Below are positions 6,524-61,100 of a DNA stretch of 64,000 bases, in pieces. Positions within the stretch are counted from its first letter, which is position 1, and each line of letters starts with the position of its first letter. This stretch comes from Meandrina meandrites. Its lineage: Eukaryota > Cnidaria > Anthozoa > Scleractinia > Meandrinidae. The notes below the pieces were generated by a model, which did not search any database, was not told where the DNA came from, and was given only the letters and a program-made list of their open reading frames with translations. A program made the translations under genes and the position numbers. The stretch covers positions 21,769,755 to 21,833,754 of the forward strand of contig OY855903.1 of assembly GCA_963693305.1 (NCBI GenBank), written 5' to 3'.

Positions 6524-6637
6524 TCAGGTGATCCACTGGACTTTCTAGGAAAACGTTAGTAAAGTAGGATAGAAAAACTACACAGCTGTTTGGAAGCGAT
6601 CTTATCAACAGAGATGAAACTTCTGTATCAGCTGAGA

Positions 6638-6643
6638 AATAAA
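6638..6643 (+). terminator. Poly(A) signal AATAAA, CTHRC1-like copy 1
   Basis: AATAAA sits about 115 bp after the stop codon in the block CAGCTGAGAAATAAAGTCC. The same block follows the second copy, so this 3' UTR piece was duplicated with the gene and conserved. Confidence 0.7.
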
Positions 6644-7606
6644 GTCCAGGAACATTATGAAATGGTTGTCTTGTTTGAGTCAGAGGTCTCCTGATAACTG
6701 GATAATAAATTTCCGGATTTCCATCGTGGTGTAAACCAGGGAAATGCAACTGAAATACTTGGAAATACACACTACTAAAAATAGCTACAAACTAATAGAT
6801 ATACTTTGTACTGTTCGCGCAGAATTCGACCACTTCTTCCAGTTATTTAAAATGATCTGATCACGTGCGTTTTGCTATTTTTTTCTTTAATCTACATGCC
6901 TGTGTGATTTCAAAATAATATTCTCGTTGAAGCCAAAATTAAATCTCTCCTTTGTCTTTAATTTGATAGTCCACATGTTTTGGTTAGCAACTCATTCACC
7001 GCGTGACGGTTGTTACGAGAAAAATGTTTGTTTTCAAGCCATAACATGGGTTTTTCCAACGAAGCTAAAACATAAACCGGCGTGTCTATCAGATGTTTTC
7101 GGGGAGATTTTTAACATTTCATTGTCACACAATGAAAATTGTTCTGTGGTAGCTAGGTCTTATAGTTTCTTTGTGTAAAAGCTTTCTCTTAAAGAATAAC
7201 AGAAGCATGTCGTGGTTGCCGACTTGTGATTCTCCTTTTGCTTAATTGAGACATTGAAAACCGGCATATTTCTAAATTTTTATGGTCATTTTATGGTCAT
7301 CTTGTCATGCCGGATCTCCAGCAAAACACGCATCATTTTATTATTAACTCAAGAACGGGTTTGGCAACTTTTAGTCTCTTCTATCTATCTTTCAATAATA
7401 ATAGTGTTAAATCAAGAGAGTACTTCACACTCTCTTGTGTTAAATATAATATGGTAAAAAAACGGTGGGGCGAGGGGGTTTATGAACATGCATGGAACCT
7501 CCTGACCGACGGCCTTTTAGAGAAAAGGGGGTTAAAACAGAGGGGGTGGGGGGGATTAATTTGAGAGCTTTTACGGTGTTTCATTTGACATAATGAAACT
7601 AAGGGT

Positions 7607-37182: not shown

Positions 37183-40100
37183 GTGACCGAAGATATGTTA
37201 CAAAATGCTAGTTTCTTGCCAACATTGCTCTTGTTACAGATGTGTTCCTATGTTGGCGGATACAGGGACTATCCAAGGCTCACTTTCGCTGCGATTGGAG
37301 ATATCGGCGGAATTCCATTTCCACCATATTATACATACACGCAAAGGAAGGTAGCTAAGGTCTTGGGAGAGGTAGGTTGTTAAAAATTGATAACTGGCTG
37401 TAACTGACTATACATAACGCGTATTACCCGTCTCGATACTAGAGACGCATGACCAGACGAACTACAAAATGTTTTCGGAAGCTCGTCCAGACGGATGACA
37501 CGTCTCTCGAAAAGCGATCATTGTTGAATCGTAGCGTACTTTTACTCCAGTTGAACGGGTGGTCTGTAGTTGTTTCAAGCGCTAAAAGAGCAAAAAAAAA
37601 CTTCAAACTTATTGTTTGCATGTCTTGATAAGTGTTGAATTGTCCTCACATGCTCAATCCGCCCGAAAAAATTAAAATTGAAAATTATTTATGCCATTTT
37701 CTTTCTCAAAATTATTTATATGTTTGGTTCCTTTTACAATCAATTCCTTTTGCACTCTATGCACAAATAGTACCTTAAGACTTATATCACTAAATGTGAG
37801 GGGTATCAGTAATTTTAAAAAACGAAGGATGATTTATACTTGGTTTAGAAAAAGAAATTTAGGCATAATATTTCTGCAAGAGACTCACTCCACAAAAGAA
37901 GTAGAAATTCAATGGAGAAATGAATGGGGTGCCAAAATTTACATGTCTCATGGAAGCTTGAACTCACGTGGGGTAGCAGTCTTGATGAAAAAAGGCGTGG
38001 GTGTTACTGTTCATTCTGAAATCATATATAGATCCTCAGGGACGTTTCATTGTTCTCAAGGTAGAGTTCAATGATAATATCTATGTTTTAATCAATGTGT
38101 ATGCTCCAAACAAAGATAAAGATATTGTCACATTTCTCGAAGCATTAAGAACAACCTTACAAACAGAAAATTTAGACGCAGAAGAAAATCTCATTGTAGG
38201 TGGGGATTTTAACTGCCCGATCAACCCAATTCTTGACAAGAAAGGGGGTTCATTGTTACCGAGAAAATCAGTTGTCGCAAGCATTAGCTGTTTTCATTAA
38301 GATCTTGATTTGGTTGATATCTGGCGTATCAAAAACCCTGTTACTAGGAGTTTTACAAGAGTCAACACTCTGCAAACATTTTTTTGCCGACTTGATTACT
38401 GGCTAATATCTAATAATTTACAAGATCTAGTAATTTCAACTAGTATAATCCCCGCTATAAAAACAGATCACTCTGCAGTTTTTGTAGAGTTTGGAACTAG
38501 AGACGACCAGCTGCAGATGAAAGGTTCCGGCCTTTGGAAAATGAATTGCTCAATTTTGGACGACGAAGATTATATACAAGATATTACTTTAAAAATTCCA
38601 GCTTGGATCGCTGATGGAGAAAAAGCATCGTCTGACAATCGTATTATTTGGGAATGGATTAAGTATAACATACGTGTACATGCTATCCAATATTCAAAAC
38701 GGCGCGCAAAGGAAAGAAGTGAACTAGAAAGTGTTCTACAAAATGACTACACAATTGCAAAAAAGAACTTTTGAAGAAAACATTAGACAATTCAAACGAA
38801 GATTGCGAGCGAGGGGTTATCCAGATAACCTTTCGGAGGGTATTTTGTCAGGAGTTAAATTTAGCGAAAGAATGTCGGCTCTACAAAATAAACAAAAGAC
38901 GCACATGATTCTACCTTTCGTAACAGAATATCGCCCTTCTGTGACTAATCTTAAGAACATTCTAATGAAAAAGTGACACCTAATAGAGAATCAACCGGTG
39001 CTCAAAGAAATATTCAAAGACCCTCCCATCTTTTCGTACAGAAAAGGGAGGTCGTTAAAAGACATACTCGTTAGAGCAAAAATCTGAAGGTCGTCAATAA
39101 CAAATCTCGACCAATGGGAGTCGTGTTTGGTCTGTCTTTTTATTTCACATCAAAAAAATTCTAAGTCTAAATACAGTAGCGTCTAATCCACCTGAGTCCA
39201 AATTCTCTAACTGTCTCAACAGATCCAATAATGTACCCCTCAACTGCACTCTTAAAGTTTCCTGTTCCTGTTCCATTTCCTGTTTAAAGAGTTCATATTT
39301 GTTTTCATTGCCACAAGGTTTCAGTTACAAGAACAAAAGTAAAGCCAACAATAATACTCGTTTATGCCCAACAAAAGATCTGCCCATTTACACGTCAGGC
39401 CCCCATTGTTAACCCAAAATGTATTCACTTTCTTTCCCCAGAGAGGGAGAATTCCCGAAAATTTGATAGGGGGGGGGGGGGGGGGGGGACGAATCACTGA
39501 GACCCTGTACCTGTTCCAGACAAAATAAGGTGAATTTGCGACCCTGTTCCAGACAAACATTGGAAATATAGGCACCCTGTTCCAGACAATATGCACGATA
39601 GAAAAAAATATATAGATATAAAAAACACTGGAGAATATCACAAAGTGCTCACTTGACTTCGTCTGTGGCTTGAAGGTAAGGCGATGAGGGAGCGGAGTTC
39701 TGGGGAAAAATCAACCCTGTTCCAAAGAGAAAGGCTGAATAATTTCTATAATAATTTCTATTTCTATATAGGCCATAAATGGCATCGCAAGGGTAGAGGA
39801 ATCTTTACTTTTTTCTTTCTCTGGTAGCGTTTTTGGAAAATCTGTCGTTATCCGAATGAACTTTCTTTTCTATATTCGCGGTAAGCTTAATTTGAGCTTA
39901 TTGTGGCAAGGAGATCGAGTTCACAAGTGATTTGCGATTGTTTGTGTCCGTTTTATCCGAGTTTAAGAGCATTCGATGCGTTGGAGATATTACACAATAA
40001 GACCTCCAAAGAAACATGCGCCACTTTCATGAATAAATCATATTCTAGGTACATATATTAAACATATATCCTTTGACGGTCGCTCAACGTGTAAACTGAA

Positions 40101-43100
40101 GAGCCCGCGGTAGTGTTTTGTCAGCGGATACAGTATACCAGCAAAGCATCTTGGGTATGGTGATCGATTTAGAAGGAAACTGATCGATTTGGAAGGTATC
40201 GAATCAATTTAAAGAGTGTCTGATCGAATTAACCTAATCGATTTAATGTGAACGATGTAATTTGCTCGATTTAGAAGGAAACTAGTCAATTTGAAAAGTA
40301 GCTGATCGAATTAACCCATCTGTTACGAGAAAATGGCATTCGATTTAGAAAAGGTTTGTTGATTGAATTGGAGCTATGGTGGTCATTTTGGAATGATGAC
40401 TTTCGATTTGTGATGTTCGATTTTGACAGTATAAACGCGCCATATTCGTGCGCGAGCTCGCTGGCACGAGCACGGCGAGAGAAGCACCAAGTACTTTCTT
40501 AATCTAGAGAAGAGGAATTATGTCAAAAAGCATATGCGGAAACTGGATATTCATGATTCGACAATAACAGATCCTTTTACAATAATGTCTGAACAGAAGC
40601 GCTTTTATCAAGATTTATATTCATCCGGTAACAATAGAACGGCTAATAATGACGCCAAATCCTTTCTTAGTAATCTAAATATTCCCAAGTTGACAGAAGA
40701 GCAGAAGCAAGCCTGTGAAGGAAAAATTCTTTTGGAAGAATGCGAGCTGATTCTTGAAACGTTTTCATCCAACAAAGCCCCAGGAAATGACGGAATCCCA
40801 ATTGAGTTTTATAGAAAGCTATGGCCTTTAATTAGTGAACCTTTTATTAAATGTGTTAATGAGTGTTTTGAGAAAGGTGAAATGTCTTTCTCTCAAAAAC
40901 AAGCTGTGATTACTCTCGTTGAAAAGAAGGGAAAGGACCGTACTCTGTTAGAAAATTGGCGACCAATCTCCTTAGTTAATGTGGACTCAAAAATTATGTC
41001 AAAAGTCATAGCATCTAGAATAAAAAATGTTTTACCCAGTATCGTTCATTACAATCAAACTGGTTTCGTTAAAGACCGTTACATTGGCGAAACAATAAGA
41101 TATATTTTTGACATAATGGAATTTACTGTCACGGAGAATATTCCTGGTTTGATGATTTTTTATAGATTTTCAGAAGGCGTTTGACAGTGTTGAATGGAAT
41201 TTCATATTAAACTGCCTTGAGGCTTTCAATTTTGGCCCGGACTTTATTCATTGGGTTAAAACATTTTACAAGAATATCCAAAGCTGTGTAATAAATAATG
41301 GTAACACATCCGATTACTTCCTTCTCGAACGCGGTGTTAGACAAGGGGACCCTCTATCCCCATACATTTTTGTTCTAGCAGCTGAGGCCCTGGCAATTGC
41401 TGTTCGTCAAGATGTGACAATAAAAGGCATCTCGGTAGGAGGAGAAGAGACGAAATTGCTTCAATATGCCGATGATATGACTGCAGTTCTTGCAGACGTT
41501 AACTCGGCTCAAGCACTTCTTGATTTACTGGAAATTTTTAAGAAAGCATCCGGTTTAATGATGAACTTTACCAAAACCGAAGGCATGTGGATTGGGTCCT
41601 CCAGGAATAACAAAACGGCTAAACCTTTAGGTATTAAATTACTCCGCCTACCCACAGTCGAGAACACTCTAATGAGAAAAGCCTGTAATTTTGTTTTTGA
41701 CTGCCTACAAGGCAACGTGACCACCCCTTTTAAAAACTATTTTAATTTTTTAACGCATAATCGTGATACGAGGAACTGTAGAGCCACTGTTGTTCTACCT
41801 AAAGTGAAACTTGAATTTGCACGAAAAAGTTTTTATTTCTCTGGCGCAAATATTTTTAATTCTTTACCTTTAAAAACTAGACAAACTAGCAGTAGGGTTT
41901 TATTTAGGCAGTATTTAAACGAATTATTTTTATAGGTTAAGTAAGCATAATTTAATAGATTTTTAACTTTTTACCTTTTATCCTTTTATATGATGTATTT
42001 TTATTTTTATATTGTTATATATATTTTTCTTTTTACAGGACCCCTTTGATAACAGTACGCATGTACTGAAGGGCCATCCTGTTTAAAAATTCGTTATTAT
42101 TATTATTATTAGCGAGCCAATTAAGGCCCTTGGGGTCTTTTACACCTATGATCAAAAGTTGCTGCTTGAAAAGAATTTCATCGAGAATTTAGACAAGATA
42201 AAGAAGCTAATTAATGTTTGGTCCTCTAGAGGCCTATCTATTTATGGTAAGGTTACTATAATTAAATCTTTAGTGATTCCTAAGTTTGTCTACGTAGCCT
42301 CGTTGATGCCAACCCCGAAAGATGTGGTCGTTGAATTGAATCGATTACTGTTTAAATTTTTATGGAATGGTAAGGACAAGGTTACTAGATTGTCAACAAT
42401 AAACGAGCTCGAGAATGGAGGTTTGAGAATGATAGACCTAGAATGTATGATAAAATCCTTGCGTTTGGCCTGGTTAAAAAGAATATGCAACGAAAGTAAA
42501 GTTACATGGAAAAATTATTTAAGGCATCTTCTGGCTAAATTTGGAGGCCTTTTTTTTCTCCGATGCAACTTTGACATGAAAGATTACACCATTAATTCAC
42601 CCTTTTACTCTGAACTCCTTAAGTGGTGGTCAGAGTTTCGTGAAAACTTTGCATCAACTGAGGACTGGCGCAATATCATATGGAACAACAAAGAAATCCG
42701 AATTAACAGTTCACCAATCTTCTATGAGGGTCGTACAGGGGGGGTCTCTGGCACGATTCACGGACGAAAAAAATAACGAATCACGGATCACGGATATTGA
42801 AATTTCATTTTCCCGAATCACGAAAATAAGTACTCTTTTATCCTGTTCTTACGCTTCAAATAGTGTTTGAAGAAATCAAAATTGATTAAGAAATTACGAA
42901 AATAAGAAAGAAACATACTCTTTTATCCTGATCTTACTCTACAAAGAGTGTTTGACGTTACGATAATTATACGGAGATCACATTTGAGGTCTCGCGTCTC
43001 AAAATCACGGAAAATAAAGTCAATAAAGTGGTGAAATCACGAATATCGGTTATTTAAATTCAAGCTCTTCACGTGTCACGCAAAACCTTCTGGTCACGGG

Positions 43101-46100
43101 TCACGAAGAATAAATTTTTTAAATTCACGTTTCACGGAAAATAAAATCAGCTAATCACGCGTCCCGAGTATACCCCTGTACGACCCTCTTCTATAAAAAC
43201 TTTTTTGATTCCGATATAGTTTTGGTAAGTGATTTGTTGTTCAATTTAACTAATACTGAATCGTTTAACATTATTAGGAACAGGATTGACAAAACAAATT
43301 TCCTCATCTAGGCCGGCCTTCGTCATGCTGTACCCCGTGAATTAAAAAATAATACGGACTCCACGTACGATCTCATTATCTTTTGCCATCAATAACAATG
43401 TTTTTGATATCTCCAAGAAAAGATCAAAACATTATTATTCATTGTTAATAAGTGAAAAGGCCCAACTCCCTGGTGCCGTTAACAAGTTGCAAGATGAGTT
43501 TCATCTCTCCATTGATTCTTTGCAGAACGTGTTTATGCTTCCACATAACGTTGCACTTGAGCCTTACGTTAAAGCATTTCAGTACAAGGTACTAAATAAT
43601 CTTTTATTTACCAATACAAAACTTTACAAAATTGGCTTCAGGACTTGTAATAAATGTTCCTTTTGTAAAACAGATTTAGAAACATTACATCATCTTTTAT
43701 ATAGTTGTCCAGTCCACACTCGAAAACTTTCTGGGATGAATTTGAACTGTACTGGTTTTCAATTTCAAAGGAGAGAATTTCTCTTAGTAAAAAAGATATA
43801 ATTGTAGGCATCATAACAAGAACATGCCCCTTACTTAACTATCTTCTTATCATCGCAAAACTCTACCTTTGGGATTGTAGAAGGAGCCAAACTATTCCAA
43901 ATATTAAAGCTTTTAGTTTTAAAGTTCAAATAAAATATGAAACTGAACTCTACATTGCACGAAATGGCAAAAAATTGGAATTTTTAAGAGAAAAGTGGGC
44001 TGATTTTCAAATATTATAATTTCTCTATTTTTGTTCTTAGTGGAGGAAGAATGTTAAGTATTTCTATAATTCAGATCGTAGTTATTTTTTTTTTTTTTGC
44101 GTACCTGTAGAGAATACCCCTTCTGACAATTGTAATTGTAATGTAAATGTAGTGTCAGTATAATGTTAAATTAGTTTTGGTATTTGTAATATGTGTATTT
44201 GCAGCAATAAAAAAAAAAATAAAAAAATAAAAACTTCAAAGGGCGCACTCCCTTCAGCTCACAGTTATAAACTTACTAGCTAAATTAGCGCTAAAAAGAT
44301 ATCAAAGACTAATCTATCCTTGCTGACACCTCTAGAAACTGTTTTTGGAAAATCGTCCGCCATTCTGGTTTGTTTATGTGAGTCTTGTCCGAGCCCGGAT
44401 GGCGTCACTCGCGCGCTTCGCTATTACAGACAAAAATTCGTTTAAATTCTACTTCTGTAATACGGACACTTCTATAAAACAGACAAGCTTCCTTGTCCCT
44501 GTGGTGCCCGTATTGCAACGAGGTTCGACTCAGTTTTAGTTTTCTTTTTATCCCGATGACAGTACATACCGTTTAGCAGTCCGGGGTCGTCCGGGAAATA
44601 ATAAAACGTTGTCATAGATAAAAGCAAATTGAAAAAAATCAAATAGGAATTAGCTAGGGGTTACAACAATACGTTTGAAATTTTCCGGACGAAACGGCGT
44701 CGCAGTATATGCCTCAAAATCAAGAACACGATTTCCTGTAAATGCAGCAAGCTATGACAGTAAGGCACTACCTCTCTGGAACCTCTATTTTCATTCGCCC
44801 GCTGGAAACACTACCTCTATTGTTATTCAGGGCTAGGGACATTGTTGTGAGCTGTTATCTATTGTAAGAACCAATGAAGTATCTCGTTCCGAGAGGTATT
44901 GGGCGACCCAGCTATGATGATTTAAGGTCGCCGGGGACATCTTAAGCTCATCATTATGCATTTATTTAAAACGAATACAAGAAGTGGCAACGATTGAGGA
45001 CCCGTCCACACTAATCCGCCGAATAAATTTGAAAACAGAGTTTTCGCCCCGAAAACGGATAAAATGTTCTCTGTCCACACTATCGTTTTCGTATTGTTCA
45101 TAATATTTTCAACGTCCACACTAATCCGGATAAATTTGAAAACGAAACACGGCATCGGCCCAAGATGAATGGCTGAGCATGCGTATATTATTACCAGAGC
45201 CCGCACTAAATTCAAATTAGGGTTTTATAATGTTTTTGTCGACGCTGAGGATAACTTCGATCAAAAAACTATTAATTTCTATTTTACTTAAGAACTTTGC
45301 AATAGTCTATATATTTCAGAGCTACTAGCTCAATATTTAAAGAATAAAGTCGAAATTTCAAAGAATGCAGGTTAACTCACGTGCAGTGCTATAACCTGCG
45401 TTGCAGACGAACTAAACCCCGGTATGCAGGCTAACAGTGCTATTGTTCTGCTAAATAAGATTACATGATCATGCATTTGGCGTCAGCGTTTTCGAAAAGC
45501 TCCGTCTTCGGCCGTTCATCCTACAACACCTAGCCGGCGTTTTCAAATTTCTGCACTTTAGAGCCGTTCTCGAAAAGCTCCGTTTTTGGTGACCGAAACC
45601 GCAGTTCCAGTGTGGACGGTTGGCCAAACGGGAGAAAAAAGATGCGTTTTCAGATTTATCTGGATAAGTGTGTACGGGGCCTGACATCCACACGTTTACG
45701 GAATATTTATGACTGAAAAGAAAATACGGCGCGTGGCTGGAAGTGTTCACGCGTGGCACGGACCCTGAGGCCGAGAGAAAAGCCAGTGATCCCAGTCAAC
45801 CGAACAGCAAAAGATTCAAGTTGTACACACGAAACAATTGTTTCCAATTCAAAATCTGCTGTTAGAGATTTTGTCTTGTTTATTGACCAGTTTATTTTAC
45901 AGTGCATTTTGGTTGTATGTTTTCTTTGTGAAAATAAGAGCATTCTGCCCCTCGATGGTTTATAAATAATTTGCCGATGTTGTCATCGGAGAGATCGGAC
46001 GAAAGATCCGAACCGTCAAAGTTATCCAACATAATGACAGGCGACAGTACTATCGGAAAGCTTGCAGTGTAACTTATTTACGGCGAACTTAGCCTGCGAG

Positions 46101-49100
46101 CAGGCTCACCTTTAGGTCACACGTGCGAACTGCGAAGCCGCGCCACGCGATCCAAAGGTGAGCCTGCTCGTAGGCTTTGGCGAACTTGAGTAATCAACCT
46201 ATTTAACTACAGTGTATATATATCTACGTGACATTGCAATGAAATCGTCATCATGCACTAGCACTCTGAACACCGTGGTGTCGAAACTCGAAGAGGAAGA
46301 TCACAGTGCAGGCCTTCTTTGTTTCAAATAGAGGCTCTACTAATGCGCAGTGCATTCTGGTCCGCTGATAACGAGGCTCTTCCACTTCGCAGAGCATTCT
46401 GGTCCGCTGAAAGCGAGGCTAAAAATCACGGCAAAATCTCGATTTTACCTCCCTTTCTTTTAAATTTTGATAATGCATGGCCGCTACGCTCGCTGCGCTC
46501 GCTCCGCAGCAGCAAAAAGTAAAATACGAAATATAATGAAATAAAAAAAAAAGATATAACGACGGGTCTTTCCCTTCTCCTTCTCCCCTCTGGTACGCAG
46601 GCCAAGGCTTTGCTGCAACCTGTTTTGTGAGCCGAAGGTTTCTTGAGAAAACGTTCATTAAAATTACCTTACTGATAAACAGACTGGTTCGCGATCTATT
46701 AACTGTGTGTCGCTTTTTTTTCGTTTCATTTTGCTCCTAGTATGCTGATTTAAAAGAAGTGAAATTCATCATTGGATTAGGCGACAATTTTTATCATGAC
46801 GGTGTTAAGACAGTGGATGATCCCCGATTTGACACAACCTTTGAGCACGTGTACACGAAGCCCACCCTAAAAACAGCCACGTGGTACATGATTGCGGGAA
46901 ATCATGACCATGTCTCAAACGTGTCTGCACAGATAGCTTACACAAAAATCTCCCCTCGCTGGCACTTTCCAGATTTCTTTTATAGTAAAGGTAAGCTTTT
47001 AAAACTAATAATAATGACAATGACAGTGGTTGCCAGGTTTATCATTTCAGTGTGGAAAGTTTTAAAACAAACGATTAAAATCGCTTGTTTTATGGTCGGT
47101 CCTCTCTTCCCTTCTCTTCTCTTCACTTCTCTTCTCTTCTCTTCTCTTCTCTTCTCTTCTCTTCTCTTCTCTTCTCTTCCCTTCCCTTCCCTTCCCTTCC
47201 CTTCCCTTCCCTTCCCTTCTCTTCTCTTCTCTTCTCTTCTCTTCTCTTCTCTTCTCTTCTCTTCTCTTCTCTTCTCTTCTCTTCTCTTCTCTTCTCTTCT
47301 CTTCTCTTCTCTTCTCTTCTCTTCTCTTCTCTTCTCTTCTCTTCTCTTCTCTTCTCTTCTCTCCTCTCCTCTCCTCTCCTCTCCTCTCCTCTCCTCTCCT
47401 CTCCTCTCCTCTCCTCTCCTCTCCTCTCCTCTCCTCTCCTCTCCTCTCCTCTCCTCTCCTCTCCTCTCTTCTCCTCTCCTCTCCTCTCCTCTTCCCTTCC
47501 TCTACATTTCCCAAAATTTTTACAGGGTTTATTTTACTGCCTTCGAGAACATCAAAGTGCTCTAGATTTTGAAGTTGGTTCTATTTTACCTAAACGCTTA
47601 ATAGATGCTTTTTTAGCTTTAAAGCTGAACTTGTTGGTTTATTTTTCACAAATTTTAAGTTTTTGCGGCTGTTCCGATATTTGTAAAGGAACGTTCCTCT
47701 AGGATCGAGTGTTCCTCATTTTTGTGTTCCTATTAACCTTAAGAGGACCAGCTTTTTACAGAGTAGGAACATAGCGTTCACTGTAAGGTGAGACAAGAAC
47801 ATTTTGTTCCGAGTTGTCAACTGCAAGTGGAACAAATTGTTCCCAAATGGGTGATTTAGGACTGTTTTGTTCCGAGTTCCTATTTGTACATGGAACACAT
47901 TGTTCCCAAATCGATAAATTAGGACTGTTTTGTTCCGAGTTCCTATTTGTGCATGGAACACATTGTTCCTAACTTGATAAATTAGGACTGTTTTGTTCCG
48001 AGTTCCTATTTGTGCGTGGAACACATTGTTCCTAACTTGATAAATTAGGACTGTTTTGTTCCGAGTTCCTATTTGTGCATGGAACACATTGTTCCTAACT
48101 TGATGAATTAGGTCTGTTTTGTTCCGAGTTCCTATTTGTGCGTGGAACACATTGTTCCTAACTTGATGAATTAGGTCTGTTTTGTTCCGAGTTCCTATTT
48201 GTGCATGGAACACATTGTTCCTAACTTGATGAATTAGGTCTGTTTTGTTCCGAGTTCCTATTTGTGCGTGGAACACATTGTTCCGAAATTAATAAAGAAA
48301 GACTGTTTTATTCCGATTTTGCTATCTGTGAATGGAATATATTGTTCCGAAATTGGTCATTAGGAACAAGTTTTGGACTTTATTGTTCCGATTTTATATC
48401 TGCTAATGGAACATTTTGTTCCAAAAGTGGTATTTCGGACTTTTTTTTTTCCGTGGTCCCATTTGCGTATGGAACATAATGTTCCCAAATTCATCGGTCA
48501 GGATTAAAGCTAGGACTGTTTTGTTCCGATTTATCGATCCGTTAACTATGTATTGTGTCCCTGAATTGAAAAAGGCGCGTACAGACCTGCTTGGGCAAGT
48601 TTGGGTTGTATCTCACTGTCATGAATTTTACACAATAGTAATGAGCGTGGGCAAGCAAGGGCATGTTTTGGCAAGTTGAAACGTCCTTTGTTTCGGCTAA
48701 GATTTAAAGGCGATTGTGTTAGCCACATGTTGTTTAAAGGGAAAAATGAGCAAGAAGTGCAAAGTCAATTGGTCAGATGTCCAAGGAGCATCACCCAAAC
48801 CAAAGCGGCTTCACTTGGAAAAAGATGAAGCAGACAGCTTGTACCATTGCCCGATACAAGAGTGTGAACATGATGGATTTCAAAGTCAGAGAGGCTGTAG
48901 AAAACACGTTAGCACTAAGCACAGTTGGTTCTTTTATTTTGACGAAAGGCCCGATTCTAAACAAGTAACAAAGTCGCTGACGATTGGAAGAAATGAAGAT
49001 GAGACAAGCGAAACCACAAAGCAGAACGTGAAGTTACTTTCGTCATTTCCATTATCATGTAACATTGGCGAAGTATTCACGAAATGGTTGACAGGAAGTG

Positions 49101-52100
49101 CTGGCGGTTGTAAGAAAGATCGTGCCGCTCAACAGATAGTGACAAGGTGCTTCAAATTTCTTAGATTTTGCTGTGAAGATGAAGAGGAGTTAACGTTTGA
49201 AGTGGTCGACTTTAGTTTGTGTTCTCCAAATCTGTTGTTTAAATTTATCGACTACTTACAAGATGAATGTAAGCTCGGCCATGGTGGGCGTTTGGGCTAC
49301 ATAGATGCTATTTCTGAATTGATCGACTTCAGAAAACTTCATGGCGCGTCAGAAGCAGTTCTAAGAAAGTTCCCTACGACAGAGTTGTACCTCAAGAGAG
49401 CCCGAAAAACAGTTGCAAAGATGATGAGATTGCAGTGGACACAAGATTTAGACATCGAGACTCTGGAAGCAAAAGGGCACTGGGCAACAATGGAGGAGTT
49501 ATTGGAGGTGGTGAAATTTCATCTGCCTCGTTACGAAAATACAGTGAAAATGTGCAAAACCAGTCCAGCCCAAGTTAACCCCTCAGACCTAACGTTTGCC
49601 ACGAAATTTGTAGCCATGTATCTGTTCATCAAGGTGAAGGGATCGCGGCCCATGACGTACCAATATTTGACGGTGGACATGATTGCCACAGCTAAGGAAA
49701 ACGGTGGATTTATCGATCAGAAAACGTTCAAGACGGCTGGAAAGTATGGCTTCGATTCTTTGATTCTGACCGACGCAAACATGCACGTTCTTAACGGCTA
49801 CATCTCGAACGTTAGACCGTTGCTTAAACCCCAGTGTGATTTCGTCCTCGTCACCAGAAATGGAGGTCAGCATGGCAAATTGGGCGAAACTATGAGCAAA
49901 CTGGTTTTTGATGCAATTGGAAAATACATTCATCCGACACGTTATCGCCAAATCGTCGAAACGCAAAGCCTCAATCAGCTCACTAGCGAAGAGCAAAGGT
50001 TTTTGTCTGAGGACCAGAAACACAGTTCTGCCGTTGCCAAAGTTCATTATCAAAAGCAACGATCGCGAGAAGTTGCCCTGAAGGGTCACGAGTGTCTTCA
50101 AAAACTTCAAGGTACCAAGGGTTCCGAGGTAGACGATGACGTACACGCAAGACTTGGCGGTTCAACGTCCAGCTCCGGGCCTTCAGTTGAGACAGCTCAG
50201 AATAACAACAGCTCGACCCTCATAAAGGATGTCCTGCCTAAGAGAAACTTGCACCTTCAGAGGAAAACTCGTCATGTTTTAAAATTCACGAAAGAAGAGG
50301 ATGATTTTCTAAAGGAAGGGATAACTAAGCACGGGTTTGGACAGTGGACCGCTATTTTGGGAGATCCCGATTTTCAATTTCAAGACGGTAGAACGGCGGA
50401 CTCTCTAAAGAAAAGGGCTGGACTCAAACTACCCCAAGCTTAGCAAGGATAAGTTTGCAGAAAAAGAGTAAAACTTCTGCTGATTTTGGTCCATGACTAT
50501 GACACTGGTTGCGAAAACCACTACCAAAACAATACTTCGAGTGGTCTTTGGAAACGAACCGTGCAAATATTACATCATTGACTGCAATTGATTAACACAC
50601 ACATTTTAATTTCTCTAACACGTATGCTCACAGTTACATCGTGTTCTCGTTGTCTTTGGGAAATGCACTAAATTAGCTTACTTGTGTTTGTCAATCTTCC
50701 ATTAAAGTGCACAATGACATGATCTCAGTCTATAATTTTAGGTTTAACATTAGTTTACATTGCTTCAAGAACTAAATTCTTTCCTGAAACCTACATGCTA
50801 TTACTTTCAGTACTTTCATTGCTCACTTTTGGCTAGTGCTTAAGTATCTCAGTATCGTGTTTGTCTTGGCTCTCTTGCTTTGTTGCCTTTGACTGGCAGA
50901 GATATTTCTGCGCCTCTTCGTGCCGTGCATACGCATCAACTGTTCTGACATCGCGCAGTCGTCAAGGTCTTCGGACAGTGGTGCACCACTTGGTTTGGGG
51001 GACGCTGGACTATGAATTCCGGGTGGTGTGGTTTGTGGAACGCAAGGTGGTGTCCGCTGTGTAACAAACAATGCGTTCTCATCTTCGTCTTCTGTTTCCA
51101 GGGAGGTGACACTACGTGCAGCGGGCAGTGGCTCATACAAGCTATTCACCATGTTTTGATCTTCCTTACGCAGCAGCCCGAGTTCCCTACACACCCGCTT
51201 TCTTTCTGCCAAGGCCTCTGAGCAACCAAGGGTGCCAAGGTTTCTGTGATGATTTCGAAGTTTGTCTGACAACAGTTCTCTCAACGCATCCATCGAAGCC
51301 GTTGTGTCAGCATCCTCGCTGATTTGTAAGGCGACCATACATTCGTGCAGTTCTTTTTCCGTATTCTGCAGCCACCGGGATTCAAATACTTCCTTCGCCC
51401 TGGACTTTCTAGTTTGCAGCGCTTCCTCGCGTTGTATATCTTCGAACGCAGCGATATCATTTCTGACTGGAGTCGGTAGTTGCTCTTGAGGGTCGGCCGG
51501 GAGCAGATTCAGGTTCTGGCTTGAGACACCCCTGCATCGGAGTACATTTTGCCTGCTTGCATATTGCTCTTGCCGCATCCGTTCTTCTTCGTTTCTTCTT
51601 CTCTCCTCCATTCTAAGTATCTTCTCAAGTTGCCTTCGACGCAGAGTTCCAGGATGCGACTGCTGGAGAAGTGTTTGCAACTCCCTTGCTCGATCGGCGT
51701 CCGGGTAGCTGTCTGTGTCGTCAGGGGGTTCATCGTCACTCGGTGCCTGACCCTCGTCGGCCAGTGCGTCTTGAGTCAGCAGAGCAGGAAGGGACAGACC
51801 TCTTATTTCTCCCTTTTCCATCTCCATCAGAATGCCTTCGGAAGCGGTCATGTCCTCTTCATCGGCGCTGCTTTCGTCTTCTGATTCCTCTTCTCCATCT
51901 GGTGCCTTGGCCATCTTGGCCGCCCAAACGACACAATCCATCGCATGCTTCTTCATCCAGGCAGAGGCTCCCTTCTTTGGCTTGGGCAGGCTTTGAAACG
52001 TGTAAGTCCTTAATCGTCTCTCCATCGCAGGTTGGTCGGCAGGACCGAAGTCAAGCTTGCGCTGTGACGTTATTAGCATTGGGCAGCGATTGATGAACGC

Positions 52101-55100
52101 TCGTGCATTTCTGTATTTCACGTCATGCGCGGCGTAACCCCCTTGAGTTAAGATTTTCCAATCGTCCATGTCGAGTGTTTTTTCCGTTGCCTCATCAATG
52201 AAAATCACCTCTGTGTATGGCGTAATCATTGATTTGTTAAAGGCACGTTGTTTTGTAACGGTGGCCACGTTCCCATGGTGGATAAGGCCAAGGATGGGAA
52301 AAAATACGCTGGTTTTCCCGCTGTTTGCATCGCCAACCAGGCATGGCACTTTGTCCTTGTGGCGCTTCTGATTGTAGCTCAGTAACTTCAAGAAATCGTG
52401 GCAAAAGTTCCTTAGGTCTTGTTCTCCCAGACTGTTTTCTAAAACTTCTTGGAAGTACTTTGGTTTGGGGTCCCCCGCCGGATCATAAACGCAGAACGCT
52501 CTTGGCGAAACTTTACCAATCTGGTGATTTTGAATGGCATCTTGGACGAAGGATCTCCTCTTGACAGACCAGCACCAACCGTCACTCACCTCAATTAGAT
52601 CATGGTCGATAATCAACGGTGCAAACAACTCGCAGTAGGGGTCTGATAATAATCCGATCACGTTCTTCATCTCTCGCACAAGTCTAGCCTTAAAAAACTC
52701 GTTTGTTGCCAAGGTGTTAATGAATGCCGCAGCATCGCATTTGTAAGCGTAAGTGAACTTCGATCGTGGATCTTTCTTGTAAATTGTGCCTCTATAACTG
52801 GCGTATCCCAGCTGTTTCATTGCGATCGAAATGTCATTTATCAAAACCGTTAGTTTGTCTGAAAGCATCTTGTCCCCAGTTGCCTTCTCGAGTGGACTTG
52901 AGTTTTCGCCTCCTGTGTCGACCGCATCAAATCTAAATTTGTCGATTCGCAGTCCAGCACCAAGGAGTTTATCGATTGCTGTTGTTAACACGGTTTGGAA
53001 ACGCGAGCTAACCAATGTCACTCGAACCACGTTTTCTGTACCGCAGTCATCCAGCTCCTGCAATGATAAGTTTCCCGCGCCGACGACATTTCTATGCTCC
53101 ATTGCAAAGGTGTGCCTGTAGGAGGATTGCACCAGATCTTCCATGAAGGGATTTTTGTGGTCTTTCAATACTTTGTATAGTTCTCTCATGGCCTCACATT
53201 CCCTACCTTCTGCAAACGTGGCCTATGAAAAATAATATTCTCCATTAAAAATAAATGCAATTATAATACATATACTGACGATAAATGATGGAGAGAAATC
53301 AAAAATGTGATGTTTGGCTTGGATGTTGCCCTACTAATTTCTTTATCTTAATTTCCGGTATATTTTTTGACTGTGGAATTTTTCAAACAAATGCAGAAAG
53401 TGCCCTTCCATTGTAGTCAATCGTCCCGAACCAACTGATGATTATTTTTAAGAGAATATAGGTACAATCTTAAAAATATACATAACATGTAATTTTCACT
53501 TTTAACCTTACGTTACAAATGGCATTTCGTCTGTCTTAGTTCGTTTGAAACCTACTTTTGCTCAAGGTCAACCGGAGAGTCCTGCAGTGACTTTAAAGAA
53601 AAACGTATGTAAAAACATAATGTTTTACCTGTTTAGCCGTGACACTCACGCCGTGCATATGCTTTAGCAACTTTCTGTGTACTGTAATGGGGTTGGCTGG
53701 GGCACCATTGGGCGTCGTCAAAGCTAGCCAGTAGGAAATGGCGGGATAAAGTGACTTATTGACAACCGTAGGACTTCCATCAATCCATTGTTCAAATGTG
53801 CTTGTCGGGATCTGGCTGGTCGGTTCATCGCTCTCATCACTCTCTTCTTCCTGTTCATCATTTACTTTGGCCTTACTCTTCTCATGCGTGCTTATTGCAC
53901 TGAAGAAGAATGCAACATCTACAATTTCTGAAAAAAAGTCCAAAATTATCACTATTCACGCCAACTTCTAAAACACTCTTGCTAGATTGAAAACAGCAAG
54001 TTAAAAGCCAAGTCAAGTTTGGGCAATACCAACCAGAAATTGCCGTGTCGCAAGCGTCTCTTGTAGCGCAGATCGTATCCCAAGACTTCTTGAGATTTCT
54101 TTCCTTGACGTCGCATACACATTTAGCACTTATAACGCTGCATTTTCCAGACACAACAGGACCCATAAAACAGAGAGCATTTCCCTTAATGGCTTGGCTG
54201 TTCAACTGTCTGCAAGGCTGTTTCGCTCTCAACATCTTCGCGTCTCGAATAGTAGTGCAAATAGCTTGAGAGAAGTGGCTCTTTATATACACTACGGTAG
54301 TTGCGAGATCACGAGGAATAAATCATATTTCACGTAAAAGCAAATGCCTTCACCATATTGGAAACTGCTCCTTTTGCTGCGAAATATCTGCGTGAGGTTC
54401 TAACAACAATTACCGCTTAATAAAACCCACCGAACCTATCGTTTCCACAATAATGATGTTCTAATTGCAGTGTTCAACTTTGTAAGACAGCATTCAGTAA
54501 AAAGGCGGACAAAAATATTCCTTCACCATATTGAGAAATGTCGCTCTTGTTTAAAACAGTGAAACCCTGTTTGGGTTACAATTTGGCTAGAAGCTGCTAA
54601 TGCCAAATGAACGTAGTATTGTCCAATAAAATAGTGGATATTTTAGCAAGAAAACGGAAAAAAGAGATCAAAAGGAAACACATGCACTTAGAGTTTTGGG
54701 ACTTCCGAAATTGTGCGAAATTCCGACATTGTGCTAATTTGACTAAATGCCGCTTTTGTAGAACAAATGTCACTTGTTCAAAAGAAATAAATAACAACGT
54801 CAGTTCAATGAATAAGTGTAATTTTAACAAAGGGATCTGAATAAACCCGAAAAATGGGTGATGATTGAGTACCAGCATTTGTGCCTATAGTTTCCAAATG
54901 AGTGATGTAGTTTACATGTTCATTTCTTCTTAGATACTTCTGATTATAAAGAAAAGTAAGAGAGTAGCACACTCTTGTTTCCGTCTTTGCCGTGACAACC
55001 GTCATATCCGACTTCAAATAAAAACTTTTCACTTGAAATATATTCCATCTAAACAATCATTCACTGCAAGTTCACCTGTCAGAGTAAAGTTTTAAAAAAC

Positions 55101-58100
55101 GAGCGAAAATGACGGACATCACGGAAAGGACGGAAACCTGAATAGAATTAAACTTTCTTCTCTATCTTACTGTAAGTATTTCTTACAAATTAAATATATA
55201 ATTGTTTTATATATTTCTTCTTAGATACTTCCAGTTGGAAAGAGAAGTAAAAGAGATAATATAGTCTTGTTTCCGTCCTTTCCGTGGTGACCGTCATATC
55301 CAACTTCAAATAAAAACTTTTACGCTTGAAATGTATTCCATCTAAACAATTATTCACTGCAAGTTCCCCTGTCAAAGTAAAGTTTTAAAAAACGAGCGGA
55401 AATGACGGACATCACGGAAAGGACGGAAATCTGAATAAAATTAAACCATCTTCTCTATCTTACTGTAAGTATTCCTTACAAATTAAATATATAATTTTTA
55501 TACTTATTTCTTCTTAGATACTTCCAGTTGGAAAGAGAAGTAAAAGAGATAATATAGTCTTGCTTCCGTCCTTTCCGTGATGACCGTCATATCCAACTTC
55601 AAATAAAAACTTTTCACTTGAAATGTATTCCATCTAGACAATCATTGACTGCAAGTTCCCCAGTCACACAATACAGTTTAAAAAAACGAACGGAAACGAC
55701 ACACATCACGGAAAGGACGGAAACCTGACTAAAATTAAATCTTCTTCTCTATCTTACTGTAAGTATTACTACGAAATTGGACATTTAGGAAGGGGAACGA
55801 GGACATTTGGAAAACGATCCCTTCCCTTCCCTTCCCTTCCCTTCCCTTCCCTTCCCTTCAGTTCCCTTCCCTTCCCTTCCCTTCCCTTCCCTTCCCTTCC
55901 CTTCCCTTCCCTTCCCTTCCTTTCCCTTCTCTTCTCTTCTCTTCTCTTCTCTTCTCTTCTCTTCTCTTCTCTTCTCTTCTCTTCTCTTCTCTTCTCTTCT
56001 CTTCTCTTCTCTTCTCTTCTCTTCTCTTCTCTTCTCTTACATTGTACATGATGTAAGTTGCAAAGTGCTGTTGTGCGTATTGCCACCCGTGTTGCAAGGT
56101 GCTGACACTTGCACAAAGTTGAACTCATGCCTACTTCGCGCAACATGTTGCATTGAAACGCATCCGGGTGGTAACATAGTTAACAGCCAACGCAACATTC
56201 TTACAAGACAAGATGAAAGAAGATGTTGTCCGTATTACTGGTCGTTAGCCGGATGTTCCATTTATTTTAATGAGATTTCCACAACATTTTACAGGAAATT
56301 TAGCTCGTTCTGGTTACTGCAAAGCGGTAAACTATTAAGGGGAATGTGTCACGGTTGAGTTAAGTTTATTTTATTAAGTTTTGCAAATGAACTCAATGTT
56401 TGCAAAGAAATTACTTCTATGGATCTAAATCACAAAACTATAGCTTCATTACAACCAAATGTGCGACTCGGGCGTCATATAAATTTAAAGTTACAAGCAA
56501 ATGAGATTAGCTTTAAAAACTGTACAGCCCTCTTCACTTATGGCCATTTGTTCCCTCTTTTGTATTTGCTGTGTTATTGAAACTTTTCTTTTTTTTTTAG
56601 CGGTTACTTTTAAAAGTCAACTCGTCTGCACCTCGTTGACAATCACTCACAGAAAACAAGAAGACTAAGAGGTGGTTTTCTTTTGACGAAAAAAGACTCA
56701 AAAATTAACTCCGTCAAGAGGGAAAATGAACTATATATCTTTTTCCCCTAAACCAAGACTTGATGTTAACATTTTTTCTATATCATTTAACTGTTTCAGT
56801 TCTTAATTTACCTGGATCATTCAAAACAGTACAGCTGGTAATGATTGATACGACTTTACTCTGTTGTAGAAAGTAAGTCAAAGTTTATCTACTATATAGA
56901 AGTTAAAATTCATGTGAAAATCTCTCGAGCGCAAAAATAGTGTTCCTTTTCTAGCCATTTTTCTTCCTTTGTGGAATGCAATGCATTGCTTCTTCCATAA
57001 TTCAATTGTTTAAAAAACATGTTTTAACGAAGCTGTATTGCCTCGTTCGCCGCTGTTCGTTGTCATGTACTTCTTGAAGTTAACGATATTTTACCAAACC
57101 CTCCTTGATCTCAATGCGTCATGTTGCTAAGTAACAAGCTGACGTAACTAGGCAACAAGCTGACATTGCAACATCGGCGTGGTATATCTGTTTGGACATG
57201 GGACAACAAATGGGAATTTCTTAGGGTGCGAAAACTAATTCCACTTGTCTTCTTTATCGGTGCATGAGCATGAGCTAAGTTTATAGAATGAAGAAGGATA
57301 GGAGGTGTGGAATTTTAGGATTGTCGTTAAAGAAACTTTGACACAGCTCGTTCAATTGCTAATTTTGAGGGGTTTTTTTTCTCTTTAATATAGGCTTCTT
57401 ATGGATTTAAGGAAATTTCCAAGTCATCAGTATCAGTTAAACTGGATAAATGAAACACTTAGGGCGCGTTCGTTTGGGATCAATCCGGAATAAGAATAAT
57501 TGGAATAATGCAAGTTAGCGTTCGTTTGGCTGCTCTTCCTATTCCGGAATACTTGGATTTCCATTCCGGCTATTCTGCTCCCAGGAGCAGAATAGCCGGA
57601 ATATATTCCAGAATATATTCTTATTCCAGAATATTCCCAAACGAACGCGCCCTTAGAAATTCTACTTGAGTATCTTTTTACATATACTCAGCAGGAAACA
57701 ACACCGTAAACTTCCCCTTAAAAGCCCCGGGTTATACAACTTCGTGAAGGGTTTTGGGTGAGCTTATAAACGGGGGGGCTCTATATCCGGGGGGGGCACT
57801 TATAAGCGGAATAAAAAAGCGTTTCAAAACGAGCCACGGAAGTGTTGATTGGAAATAAGTCATAACAAAGCAACATTTAGCTTTGTTTAGTACTGTCATC
57901 CAGCAGAAGCGGGGCTTATATCCGTGTAGGGGCTTATAACCGGATATATTTTATTTTGTCTCCAGGTCACGGATGGGCCTATAACGGGGGTGGGGTGGGG
58001 CTTATAACCGGTATTTTACGGTATGTGGCTTAAGGAAACTTCGAAGTTTGAAAACTCTGCAAGCAGAAAGGAAGTACTCAGAGCGCCTGAGATTTAGCGT

Positions 58101-61100
58101 TGTGATTGGTTAGCTCTTTCGCTTCAGTGCTTGCAAATGCGAATCAAAAAATGTAGTTTCCACTGGATCATAAGCGACTGAGTCACAGGCGGAATGTATT
58201 AATCTTTCACTCGTATTATAACTATGGAGTCGTGTTTCATTTTATCAGAATTGAGTAATTATTCTTTTCTTTAATATATCTGTGAATTTTAGCGCGGACT
58301 ACCTCATAGTAGCTGGTCATCATCCCGTCTTCTCAGCCGGTTTACACGGAAATACTCCTTATCTTGAATCTAACCTCAAGCCTTTGCTGGAGGAGAATAA
58401 CGTCACGCTATACCTTAGTGGTCACGATCACAATCTACAGGTGAGTGACAAGAGTCTTCTTTTTTTCGCCCCCGCCCCCTCGCGCCTCTCTTTTACGCTG
58501 GCGTCCAGTTCACTCACCGCTCTTTCCCCGCTTTAAACGATCAAAGAAAAACCCGAAAAAATAGAGGGCTGTGAGCAGTCTAACAAGATTCTGGAAACAG
58601 AAATGTTTCAGTCCCAGACTCCTGTTTGGAGATGTCTGCGCATGGAGAAGACTTATGGGTAGAGAGATAAATTTGTTTCTAGGGCAACTGTGTTCATGGA
58701 TTGAGCGCAAGTAGTTCACCTCATGGCTTGTCGGATTCAGGTTATTACCCGACATGATTAAAAAGTAGAGATCGACCTGCTAAGGTCTATTGGGAATCAG
58801 TGAATCTATTGGATGTGCAATCGTTGAGTATTCCTAAAATTTTTAGCCGATCAGTATGGAGCGTTTTCACTCACGTGACCAGCGGCCATATTGGTTTGCT
58901 AAAACAAAAGACAATTTTTTACATAAAATGGAATTAATTTCCGGAGGAATAGCTGAAAACACCAATATGGCCACCGTTTCTTTGTTTTGGAACACCAATA
59001 TGGCTGCCTTGACATCATTTGAAAACGCTCTATTCCTGATTTATTATAATATGGCTGAATCCGCGAGCGGGCGAGGAGAGGCGAATCCTGTGTTCTGATT
59101 GGCTACCCGTCATACCTAAAGCACCTGTTTACCCAAGAGGCTTTCCGCTTTCACTGAAGTTCAATTTTAAAAAGAAAGGTTTGTCAAACAAAGAAAACAA
59201 GAAAGCCTACCTACTTATTAAATAACTTATCACAATATTCGTCGTTGTTGTTTCGCCATGAAAATCGTATTGTTTTTTGAACAGTTGTCAACCCAACCTC
59301 GTTCCCAGAGCTTTTCGCCCGTCCCAAAATTACCAAAGGAAATTAAGTCCTGGGAACGAGGTTGCTGTCAAACGCAATAATTCCTTCCTGTATCATAAAC
59401 CGTTTTTCACTGAGTGCTGAAAGTAATGGTGTTTGCTTTGATTTTGCATTGCTATGCTTAGTGAAAGTTGATTTAAAAATCTCTTGCAAGTTTCTCGACC
59501 AATCATAAAACAAAATCCAATCAGTGAGTACTTACTGAAACATGTTTCCCTGCGCTTCATAAAAAGGTAAAGGTAAAGCAACTTTATTTATATATACACG
59601 GTTTGTGTCTAAAGCTAGAGGCTTGTGGGGCCGTGTATATGAAACAAATACTAAATAAAATAAACATAACATGGTTAAAAATCCCAACTGGCAGAAGGCA
59701 GACCAGTTGACTCTCTCTCTCGCTTCACTCATGTCGGCGAAGAACATAAAACTTTTAATACTACTGATTTATTGATAAATTTGATATGTTCATTTGCCGC
59801 GAGCCTGAGACAAAGAAAAAATCTGAGTCCACGACGGGAATCGAACCCATGGCTTCCCAGATACCGGTTGGGCCCTCTAATTATAACCACTGAGCTACGA
59901 GATGGTGGTGAGCTAGGCCATTTACTAGGTTGATATGTGACACGCCTCCTGCATACTGCCAGGATCAGCAATCTAGATCTCGAAGTCATCGAAAGCATCG
60001 TATATGCGTAAGATTTAATGGGAAGATGGTAAATTTTAAGCTCGATAAATGATTTGCTGATTACCATTACTGTTATACTTTATTTGCAGTATCTAAAGGA
60101 AAATCAATCAAATGTACACTACTTCGTGTCAGGAAGTGGATGCAAATACAGTCGAATCCACGAGGGGCATAAACAAAACGTCAGCATGTCACTTAAGTAA
60201 GTCACGGGTCGAGGCGCTTCTATCTGGCGAACTAACACTTTTACATAATTTAAAGTGCGTCACTTTATGTGTTTGACCTACAATGCCATTAGATATCTTG
60301 CATTGGAGGAAAATTAATTTTGTTTGCTTTGTTTTCCACCTCCATTCCGTTCCTTTTTCAAGTCAGTTGACATCAATTAAAAGTTTAAATCGTTGTACAG
60401 ATTTTAATTAAATATATTCTGAAAAAAACGAGGGCCTCTCATGGACGGATGCATGCTTCCTTTATAGACTTTATATGTTAAATAATAGACTAATTTCGAT
60501 AATTTTAAATAAGGTTTTTCGCCAAGAAAAGGCGATGGCCCTCGTTCCCTCGAAATAATCCAAAAATGTCCCTGTTCCTTTAAAATAATTATATAAATTA
60601 GCATGTTTAAATGCTCCCCAAAACCCCTGGGAGACCCTTAAAAATACTTGAAGGGTTTCGGTTTTTAGTTTCAAAGGCGAGTGAGTCACTGTGAGTCACT
60701 GCACAACTCATCATCCAGAATGTTGTAACGTCACTATGATGTCAAAGGCATACGCCATGTTGCTTATTGACTTATTTGACAAAAATTTCGCCGGGGGGGG
60801 GGGGGGGGAAGAAAGTTGTCGCCAGTACCGAGAGTTTCAACCGAGAGGAGAGAGGAATTCTTGACTCGCACTCACATATGGTTCAAGGCTTCCCTATTGC
60901 TTTTAACTTCGCCATTATGAAACGTTTTGGTTTTGTGTTTTCAGGTTTTTTAACGGTAAAAGCGGTGCATTCACTTTACTCCAAGCCTCTCCAGATTTCC
61001 TCAAAATCACGCAAATCGATGAGAATGGAAACGAGGTGAACAAGGCACAGTTAAAGCCAAGACGTTCGAGAACAGCGGTGACTTCCAGTGTTAGTAAAAG

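What the first reader, a model, noticed from the sequence alone, without database searches (positions are those of the whole stretch)
47689..54292. Candidate new animal mobile element: tyrosine recombinase paired with an SF3 (NS1-like) helicase
Seen: two long open genes in convergent orientation, 380 bp apart, inside one host intron. One has a full tyrosine recombinase signature (R311, H406-R409, H436, Y445). The other has Walker A, Walker B, B', motif C and an Arg finger of an SF3 helicase. An array of palindromic 63-bp units lies upstream of the recombinase. Known: SF3 helicases serve small viral or plasmid replicons; animal Cryptons use a tyrosine recombinase and I know of no standard Crypton with an SF3 helicase. 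Inference: an integrating, possibly extrachromosomally replicating element.
Basis: partly seen in the sequence, partly recalled or inferred. Interest (0 to 1): 0.88.

Follow-up and report, generated by a model that had tools for sequence, protein, structure and literature searches.

The report
Coral mobile element: recombinase plus helicase
In a coral genome there is an 8.3-kb mobile DNA element, present in many copies, that pairs a phage-type DNA-joining enzyme with a virus-type replication helicase, often lands in simple pyrimidine repeats, and has kept its recombinase while exchanging its helicase, which is not how known animal DNA transposons are built.

Summary
It encodes a C2H2-tyrosine recombinase (YR)-Myb protein (48746-50443 +) and, tail to tail 379 bp away, a three-exon SF3-helicase gene (54235-50823 -). 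Upstream of the YR lies a 63-bp array built on the dyad GGAACA-NNN-TGTTCC. The window's genome (551 Mb) gave 77 YR matches. Of the 30 fetched with 1.5-kb flanks, 23 have a helicase relative just downstream, 23 of 23 on the opposite strand. In 17 of these 23 the YR-side DNA is 91.9-97.1% identical to the window's but the helicase only about 26-54% identical in protein: the helicase module is exchanged, with the break at the YR stop codon. Left ends are exact in the 23 of 30 loci where found (TC|CTCTACATTT). Four of four non-tandem right ends read abut pyrimidine repeats. Five tandem junctions carry 11-bp inverted arms (0-2 mismatches) around the crossover. Fourteen neighbouring copy pairs are all head-to-tail. 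This is site-specific integration by a YR. That the helicase replicates an excised circle from the dyad array is inferred, not shown. No description was found in the searched library.

The parts
47498..47520 (+). left end: TC|CTCTACATTTCCCAAAATTTT; inner arm TTTCCCAAAAT; crossover TCC(T)
   Evidence: same junction in the 23 of 30 loci in which a left end was found (near variants in L015, L018, L026), flanks differ
47103..47497 (.). left half of the target: CTTCT/CTTCC/CTCTC pyrimidine microsatellite (host side)
   Evidence: homology with other copies starts at 47490-47498 in many loci
47671..48530 (.). array of 63-bp units (8.4 tandem copies plus diverged ones) with dyad GGAACA-NNN-TGTTCC; candidate origin/control region
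   Evidence: exact dyads in 29 of 30 loci
48746..50443 (+). tyrosine recombinase gene, 565 aa: C2H2-like finger, YR domain (R301 K326 H396 R399 H426 Y435), C-terminal Myb domain
50428..50447 (.). module boundary: DNA homology with copies that do not carry the window-type helicase stops here
   Evidence: 22 of 24 such loci; exceptions L017 (50816) and L030 (50270)
50823..53222 (-). helicase gene exon 3 with the SF3 helicase domain; stop codon at its end
53629..53927 (-). helicase gene exon 2
   Evidence: GT-AG sites in frame; peptide matches homologues P0034, P0037, P0070, P0076
54034..54235 (-). helicase gene exon 1 (ATG at 54235)
54281..54289 (-). TATATAAAG box, 54 nt from the start codon
54922..55767 (.). 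293-bp tandem repeat (2.9 copies) with CGGAAAGGACGGAAA inverted motifs, inside the element
   Evidence: covered by homology in L036 (to 55700) and L038 (to 55850)
55801..55820 (+). right end GGACATTTGGAAAACGATCC
   Evidence: same end in L037, L038, L039 and at tandem junctions
55821..56038 (.). right half of the target: CTTCC/CTTCT microsatellite (host side)
   Evidence: same kind of repeat on both sides in window, L038 and L039

Best explanation
This is a two-gene integrating element of corals, 8.3 kb long here. Its YR recombines the two ends through a TCC(T) crossover flanked by 11-bp inverted arms (ATTTTGGGAAA ... TTTCCCAAAAT). It inserts at TCC, often in pyrimidine microsatellites, or at the end of a resident copy, which builds head-to-tail arrays. 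Shown by sequence: the ends, their motifs, the target type, the tandem junctions, the conserved gene order. Inferred: the excised form is a circle on which the dyad array lies between the two divergent promoters; the SF3 protein assembles there as a replicative helicase and copies the circle with host polymerases before reintegration. The helicase module has been exchanged among copies while the YR module stayed nearly the same, as in phages with swapped replication modules.
Against: No circle, no transcript and no activity was observed. The AlphaFold model of the YR was unusable (mean pLDDT 36) and profile comparison with six known YRs was not significant (E 0.36). 7 of 30 loci show no helicase within 1.5 kb, so the YR can spread without one in cis. 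8 of 23 left flanks are neither a clear pyrimidine repeat nor another copy's end. The fourth diverged array copy (48514) lost the dyad (6 of 12 arm positions). The 12-bp spacer between the arms is longer than the 6-8 bp quoted for YR sites (PMC3212892, passages).
Confidence: 0.8

Rival explanations
1. The mobile unit is the YR module alone (47498 to about 50447), a Crypton-like transposon; the helicase is a separate gene or another element beside it.
For: DNA homology stops at 50428-50447 in 22 of 24 loci without the window-type helicase; 7 of 30 loci show no helicase; YR relatives outnumber helicase relatives in the database (970 against 151 at E<=0.001, the latter from a capped candidate list).
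Against: The helicase is next to the YR in 23 of 30 loci and always tail to tail. Homology runs to 55850 in L038, and the right end lies beyond the helicase also in L039, whose helicase is another one. No terminal motif or target repeat was noticed at 50447.
Confidence: 0.07
2. An endogenous DNA virus (parvovirus-like, papilloma-like or polinton-like) that has lost its capsid genes and moves as a transposon.
For: SF3 helicases of this fold are typical of viral replication proteins; polinton-like viruses include members with YR and with SF3 helicase (PMC4642659, passages).
Against: No capsid-like ORF was recognised in the element (ORF list; only 4 ORFs scanned). Elements with other helicases are of similar size (L039 about 8.7 kb, L040 about 8.1 kb), so loss would have to be old and general.
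Confidence: 0.1
3. The element is as described, but the dyad array is a promoter/enhancer or YR accessory site, and the SF3 protein acts in another step (for example at the integrated ends) rather than replicating a circle.
For: The array lies just upstream of the YR gene and the YR carries a Myb domain that could bind it; no origin-binding domain was recognised in the helicase N-terminus.
Against: SF3 proteins of known function are replication proteins (established knowledge, recalled); paired short dyads resemble viral origins (recalled).
Confidence: 0.3

Closest known systems
Crypton DNA transposons (CryptonA in animals)
   Same: YR-encoding DNA transposon, short shared sequence at the ends in fungal and oomycete members, circle proposed as intermediate (PMC3212892, passages).
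   Different: Animal Cryptons were reported with a YR only, no C-terminal domain and no terminal repeats; here C2H2 + YR + Myb, an SF3 helicase gene, dyad array, inverted arms at the ends, pyrimidine-repeat target; no DUF3504 match.
Polinton-like viruses and virophages with YR and SF3 helicase
   Same: YR and SF3 helicase in one element; circular form proposed for integration (PMC4642659 and PMC12220804, passages).
   Different: Those are larger (14-40 kb for PLVs, abstract start) and encode capsid and packaging genes; none recognised here.
Integrated elements of Thaumarchaeota with integrase and SF3 replication proteins
   Same: Integrase, att sites and diverse replication modules, some with an SF3 domain (PMC6563490, passages).
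   Different: Archaeal hosts, other proteins, usually more genes.
Papillomavirus E1 / parvovirus NS1 / SF3 initiators
   Same: SF3 helicase fold; paired short sites in dyads near divergent promoters (recalled).
   Different: No HUH nuclease motif, low sequence similarity (weak matches in 12 and 16 of 45 relatives).

Membership tests
Tyrosine recombinase superfamily | R-K-HxxR-H/W-Y catalytic pattern with canonical spacing | tested here: met
   conserved in 22-23 of 23 and 26-27 of 27 rows; R399 to H426 is 27 residues, a few longer than in the fetched ones
Tyrosine recombinase superfamily | profile match or fold of the catalytic domain | tested here: inconclusive
   no Pfam match, hhalign E 0.36, model pLDDT 36
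Tyrosine recombinase superfamily | site-specific junctions with inverted arms around a short core | tested here: met
   5 of 5 tandem junctions, 0-2 mismatches in 11; spacer 12 bp
Crypton | short direct repeat shared by both termini | tested here: met
   TCC(T) at both ends and in the target
Crypton | YR related to Crypton YR (DUF3504 profile) | tested here: not met
   not among the Pfam matches of the window YR or of 23 and 27 aligned sequences (one search shows 25 of 42 families)
Crypton | animal Cryptons: YR only, no C-terminal domain | tested here: not met
   Myb domain and helicase gene
SF3 helicase | Walker A/B, motif C and SF3 fold | tested here: met
   invariant K460, D500, E501 of P0037
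Parvovirus NS1 / CRESS Rep | HUH nuclease motif in the N-terminal part | tested here: not met
   no HxH in 8 of 8 N-terminal stretches
Polinton-like virus / Polinton | major capsid protein and packaging ATPase | tested here: inconclusive
   none recognised in the ORF list; only 4 ORFs of the element scanned
DIRS-type retrotransposon | reverse transcriptase beside the YR | tested here: not met
   the two long frames of the element are YR and helicase; no RT among the 4 ORFs scanned; an RT was found at 40435-41935, outside

The most novel reading that the evidence does not exclude
An animal counterpart of integrative plasmids: a capsid-less DNA element that lives as an integrated copy and as a self-replicating circle, with its own recombinase, initiator helicase and origin, and that trades whole replication modules between lineages while keeping one recombinase and one set of ends.
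Probability: 0.5. Interest if true: 0.92.

Novelty: new variant of a known kind. Interest (0 to 1): 0.85.

Why it matters
The animal YR transposons described in the papers seen here carry no replication gene. An element with its own initiator-type helicase, mapped ends, att-type junctions, a definable target and nearly identical recent copies makes it testable whether animal genomes host self-replicating episomes that integrate. The swapped helicase modules point to phage-like modular evolution inside an animal genome, and the recombinase with its short target could be a new site-specific tool.

Tried and rejected
Viral contigs: helicase single, YR single (14), helicase alignment (38) and YR alignment (112) gave no confirmed relative; neither did genome contigs with the helicase alignment (113) nor phage records with either protein (101, 102). 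Contig coincidence in the protein database: 5 contigs of at least 50 kb shared (0.008 on average in shifted controls), one of 3,053 bp (0.17 in controls for small ones, so it may be chance). Whether sharing exceeds random placement depends on the assumed assembly total: P 0.68 at 2 Gb and 0.006 at 10 Gb over all large contigs, 0.0006 at 2 Gb for those up to 166 kb. For that count 113 of 120 helicase rows and 231 of 240 YR rows were used; chromosome-scale NCBI rows and duplicates were left out, and one row may have slipped in retyping. It was superseded. The terminal-repeat search before other copies were at hand found nothing. The YR model was too poor for a fold search. The ORF of 190 aa antisense through the 63-bp array was judged a by-product of a unit divisible by three; no test was run. 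The 10.5-bp phase of the pentamers follows in part from the 63-bp period itself and is weak evidence. A missing family in the VIA list is not evidence of absence. Whole-genome search with the helicase did not complete, so solo helicases were not counted. Repbase was not available. A search for papers on E1 binding sites gave nothing of use.
Full report
What is there. In the window a recombinase ORF (48746-50443 +) and a helicase ORF (50823-53222 -) face each other across 379 bp. They lie between two stretches that match Pfam Metallophos (46741-46992 and 58255-58440), so in an intron of a phosphatase gene. The host is a stony coral by inference: the closest named helicase relative (96% over 46% of the query) is from Oculina patagonica, other named ones from Acropora, Montipora, Porites and Desmophyllum (120 of 151 hits listed).

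The recombinase. Counted from its ATG, R301, K326, H396, R399, H426 and Y435 form the YR pattern. Each is the residue in 22-23 of 23 close relatives and in 26-27 of 27 broader ones. The pattern is found in 6 of 6 known YRs fetched for the purpose, in 188 of 238 YR-family proteins (many truncated), in 1 of 120 helicases and in 99 of 20,000 shuffles. A C2H2-like finger precedes and a Myb domain (E 2.5e-6) follows. Against the assignment: no Pfam recombinase or DUF3504 match, a non-significant profile comparison (E 0.36) and a failed model (mean pLDDT 36). The junctions described below settle it.

The array. 45 of the window's 132 GGAAC/GTTCC pentamers lie in 47671-48523. The dyad GGAACANNNTGTTCC occurs ten times, only there. 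In three diverged copies the dyad arms have 1 change in 36 positions and the rest 42 in 120; a fourth copy has lost the dyad (6 of 12 arm positions). Sixty-three bp is six turns of 10.5 bp; the phase seen at 10.5 follows partly from that period itself.

Other copies. After many unanswered tries the window's own genome (551 Mb, 56 contigs) gave 77 YR matches; 30 came with 1.5-kb flanks, chosen by score. By tblastn and by profile, 23 of 30 have a helicase relative directly downstream, 23 of 23 on the opposite strand. No helicase was found in L013, L014, L017, L029, L032, L033 and L034. Exact dyads lie in 29 of 30 (not L007). Six loci (L006, which is the window itself, L007, L008, L009, L019, L031) carry the window-type helicase, 96-100% identical over the C-terminal part seen. 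In the longer stretch at L019's place (L038) the first 612 residues match at 87.6% and the rest at 98.3%. Seventeen loci carry helicases only about 26-54% identical per matched stretch, while their YR-side DNA is 91.9-97.1% identical over its main match. In 22 of the 24 loci without the window-type helicase the DNA homology ends at 50428-50447, at the YR stop codon; the exceptions are L017 (50816) and L030 (50270). The simplest reading is exchange of the helicase module against a constant recombinase module.

The ends. The left end was found in 23 of 30 loci; all 23 read TC|CTCTACATTT, or a near variant in L015, L018 and L026. The 30 bases before it are at least 90% pyrimidine in 10 of 23, the right end of another copy in 5 (L009, L012, L013, L017, L023), and other sequence in 8, three of which (L014, L028, L032) end in short pyrimidine runs; the loci overall are 50.8% pyrimidine. 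The right end TTTGGAAAACGATCC is at 55806-55820 in the window and in L037, L038 and L039, four of four followed by a pyrimidine repeat. In window, L038 and L039 the same kind of repeat lies on both sides; L037 has another copy's end on its left. L036 showed no right end within its stretch (homology to 55700), and in L040 the end is followed by a variant left end. At the five tandem junctions the sequence is, in the type form, ATTTTGGGAAA-CGATCCTCTACA-TTTCCCAAAAT: 11-bp inverted arms around the crossover, exact in L017 and L023, 1 mismatch in L009 and L013, 2 in L012. That is what a YR circle junction should look like, though the 12-bp spacer is longer than usual. The window element is therefore 47498-55820 and includes the 293-bp repeat (54922-55767), which homology covers in L036 and L038.

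Tandem arrays. Fifteen neighbour pairs of YR matches lie within 12.5 kb (0.13 expected at random), one of them a single split copy; all are on the same strand. Six copies on C7 are spaced 7118, 7349, 7350, 7349 and 8212 bp. Integration into a resident end, or integration of concatemers, explains this; later unequal crossing over may add to it.

Mechanism. Shown by sequence: one unit, its ends, its target, its gene order, high identity between copies, exchange of the helicase. Inferred: excision as a circle, on which the array separates two divergent promoters; helicase loading at the array; replication with host polymerases; YR integration at TCC. Probability that it is one YR-moved element: about 0.95; that the helicase replicates an excised form: about 0.7; that the array is the origin: about 0.55.

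Known or new. Literature searches (open-access library only) showed no YR plus SF3 transposon in animals. I saw listings, and passages of PMC3212892, PMC5013282, PMC12220804, PMC6563490, PMC4642659, PMC3537659, PMC5753468, PMC11071296 and PMC4046053. Repbase itself was not searched, so single families may lie there unrecognised. Cryptons share the enzyme class and mode of ends but fail two tested features; polinton-like viruses share the gene pair but have capsids.

Noticed in passing
37682-43801 +: Broken LINE with endonuclease (PF03372, E 4e-4, below Pfam's cut-off) and reverse transcriptase (PF00078) in several frames.
   Followed up: partly
about 57460-57656: Small inverted-repeat element: GGGCGCGTTCGTTTGGGA ... 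TCCCAAACGAACGCGCCC with TTA on both sides, containing an inner palindrome; looks like a MITE (read by eye).
   Followed up: no
3844-4287 and 14055-14465 +: Two very similar collagen-repeat exons about 10 kb apart, probably a recent duplication (Pfam Collagen tested for the first only).
   Followed up: no
31029-32060 -: Open frame of 343 aa, rich in S and K, no Pfam match at E 0.01.
   Followed up: no
L017, L037: Internal deletion derivatives: L017 jumps from 50816 to the region near 54624 (helicase lost), L037 from 54296 to 55760 (293-bp repeat lost).
   Followed up: partly
L036, about 6334-6762: Copy with an insertion of about 430 bp at the place of window 53506.
   Followed up: no
G000 C7:8297285-8336357: Six head-to-tail copies with nearly constant spacing, five of them of the YR subfamily at 76-77% identity.
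   Followed up: partly
G000, many places: A second YR subfamily (73-79% identical to the window YR) makes up 46 of the 77 matches; its partners were not examined except in L033 and L034, where no helicase was detected.
   Followed up: no
P0336, P0338: YR relatives with Myb domain (63 and 47% identical in alignment A3) in the sea anemone Actinostola, so the recombinase is not limited to stony corals.
   Followed up: no
48746-50443, residues 513-557: The Myb domain resembles those of telomere proteins TRF1/TRF2 and CHD1 (profile E 5e-4 for TRF2); possible role in target choice.
   Followed up: no
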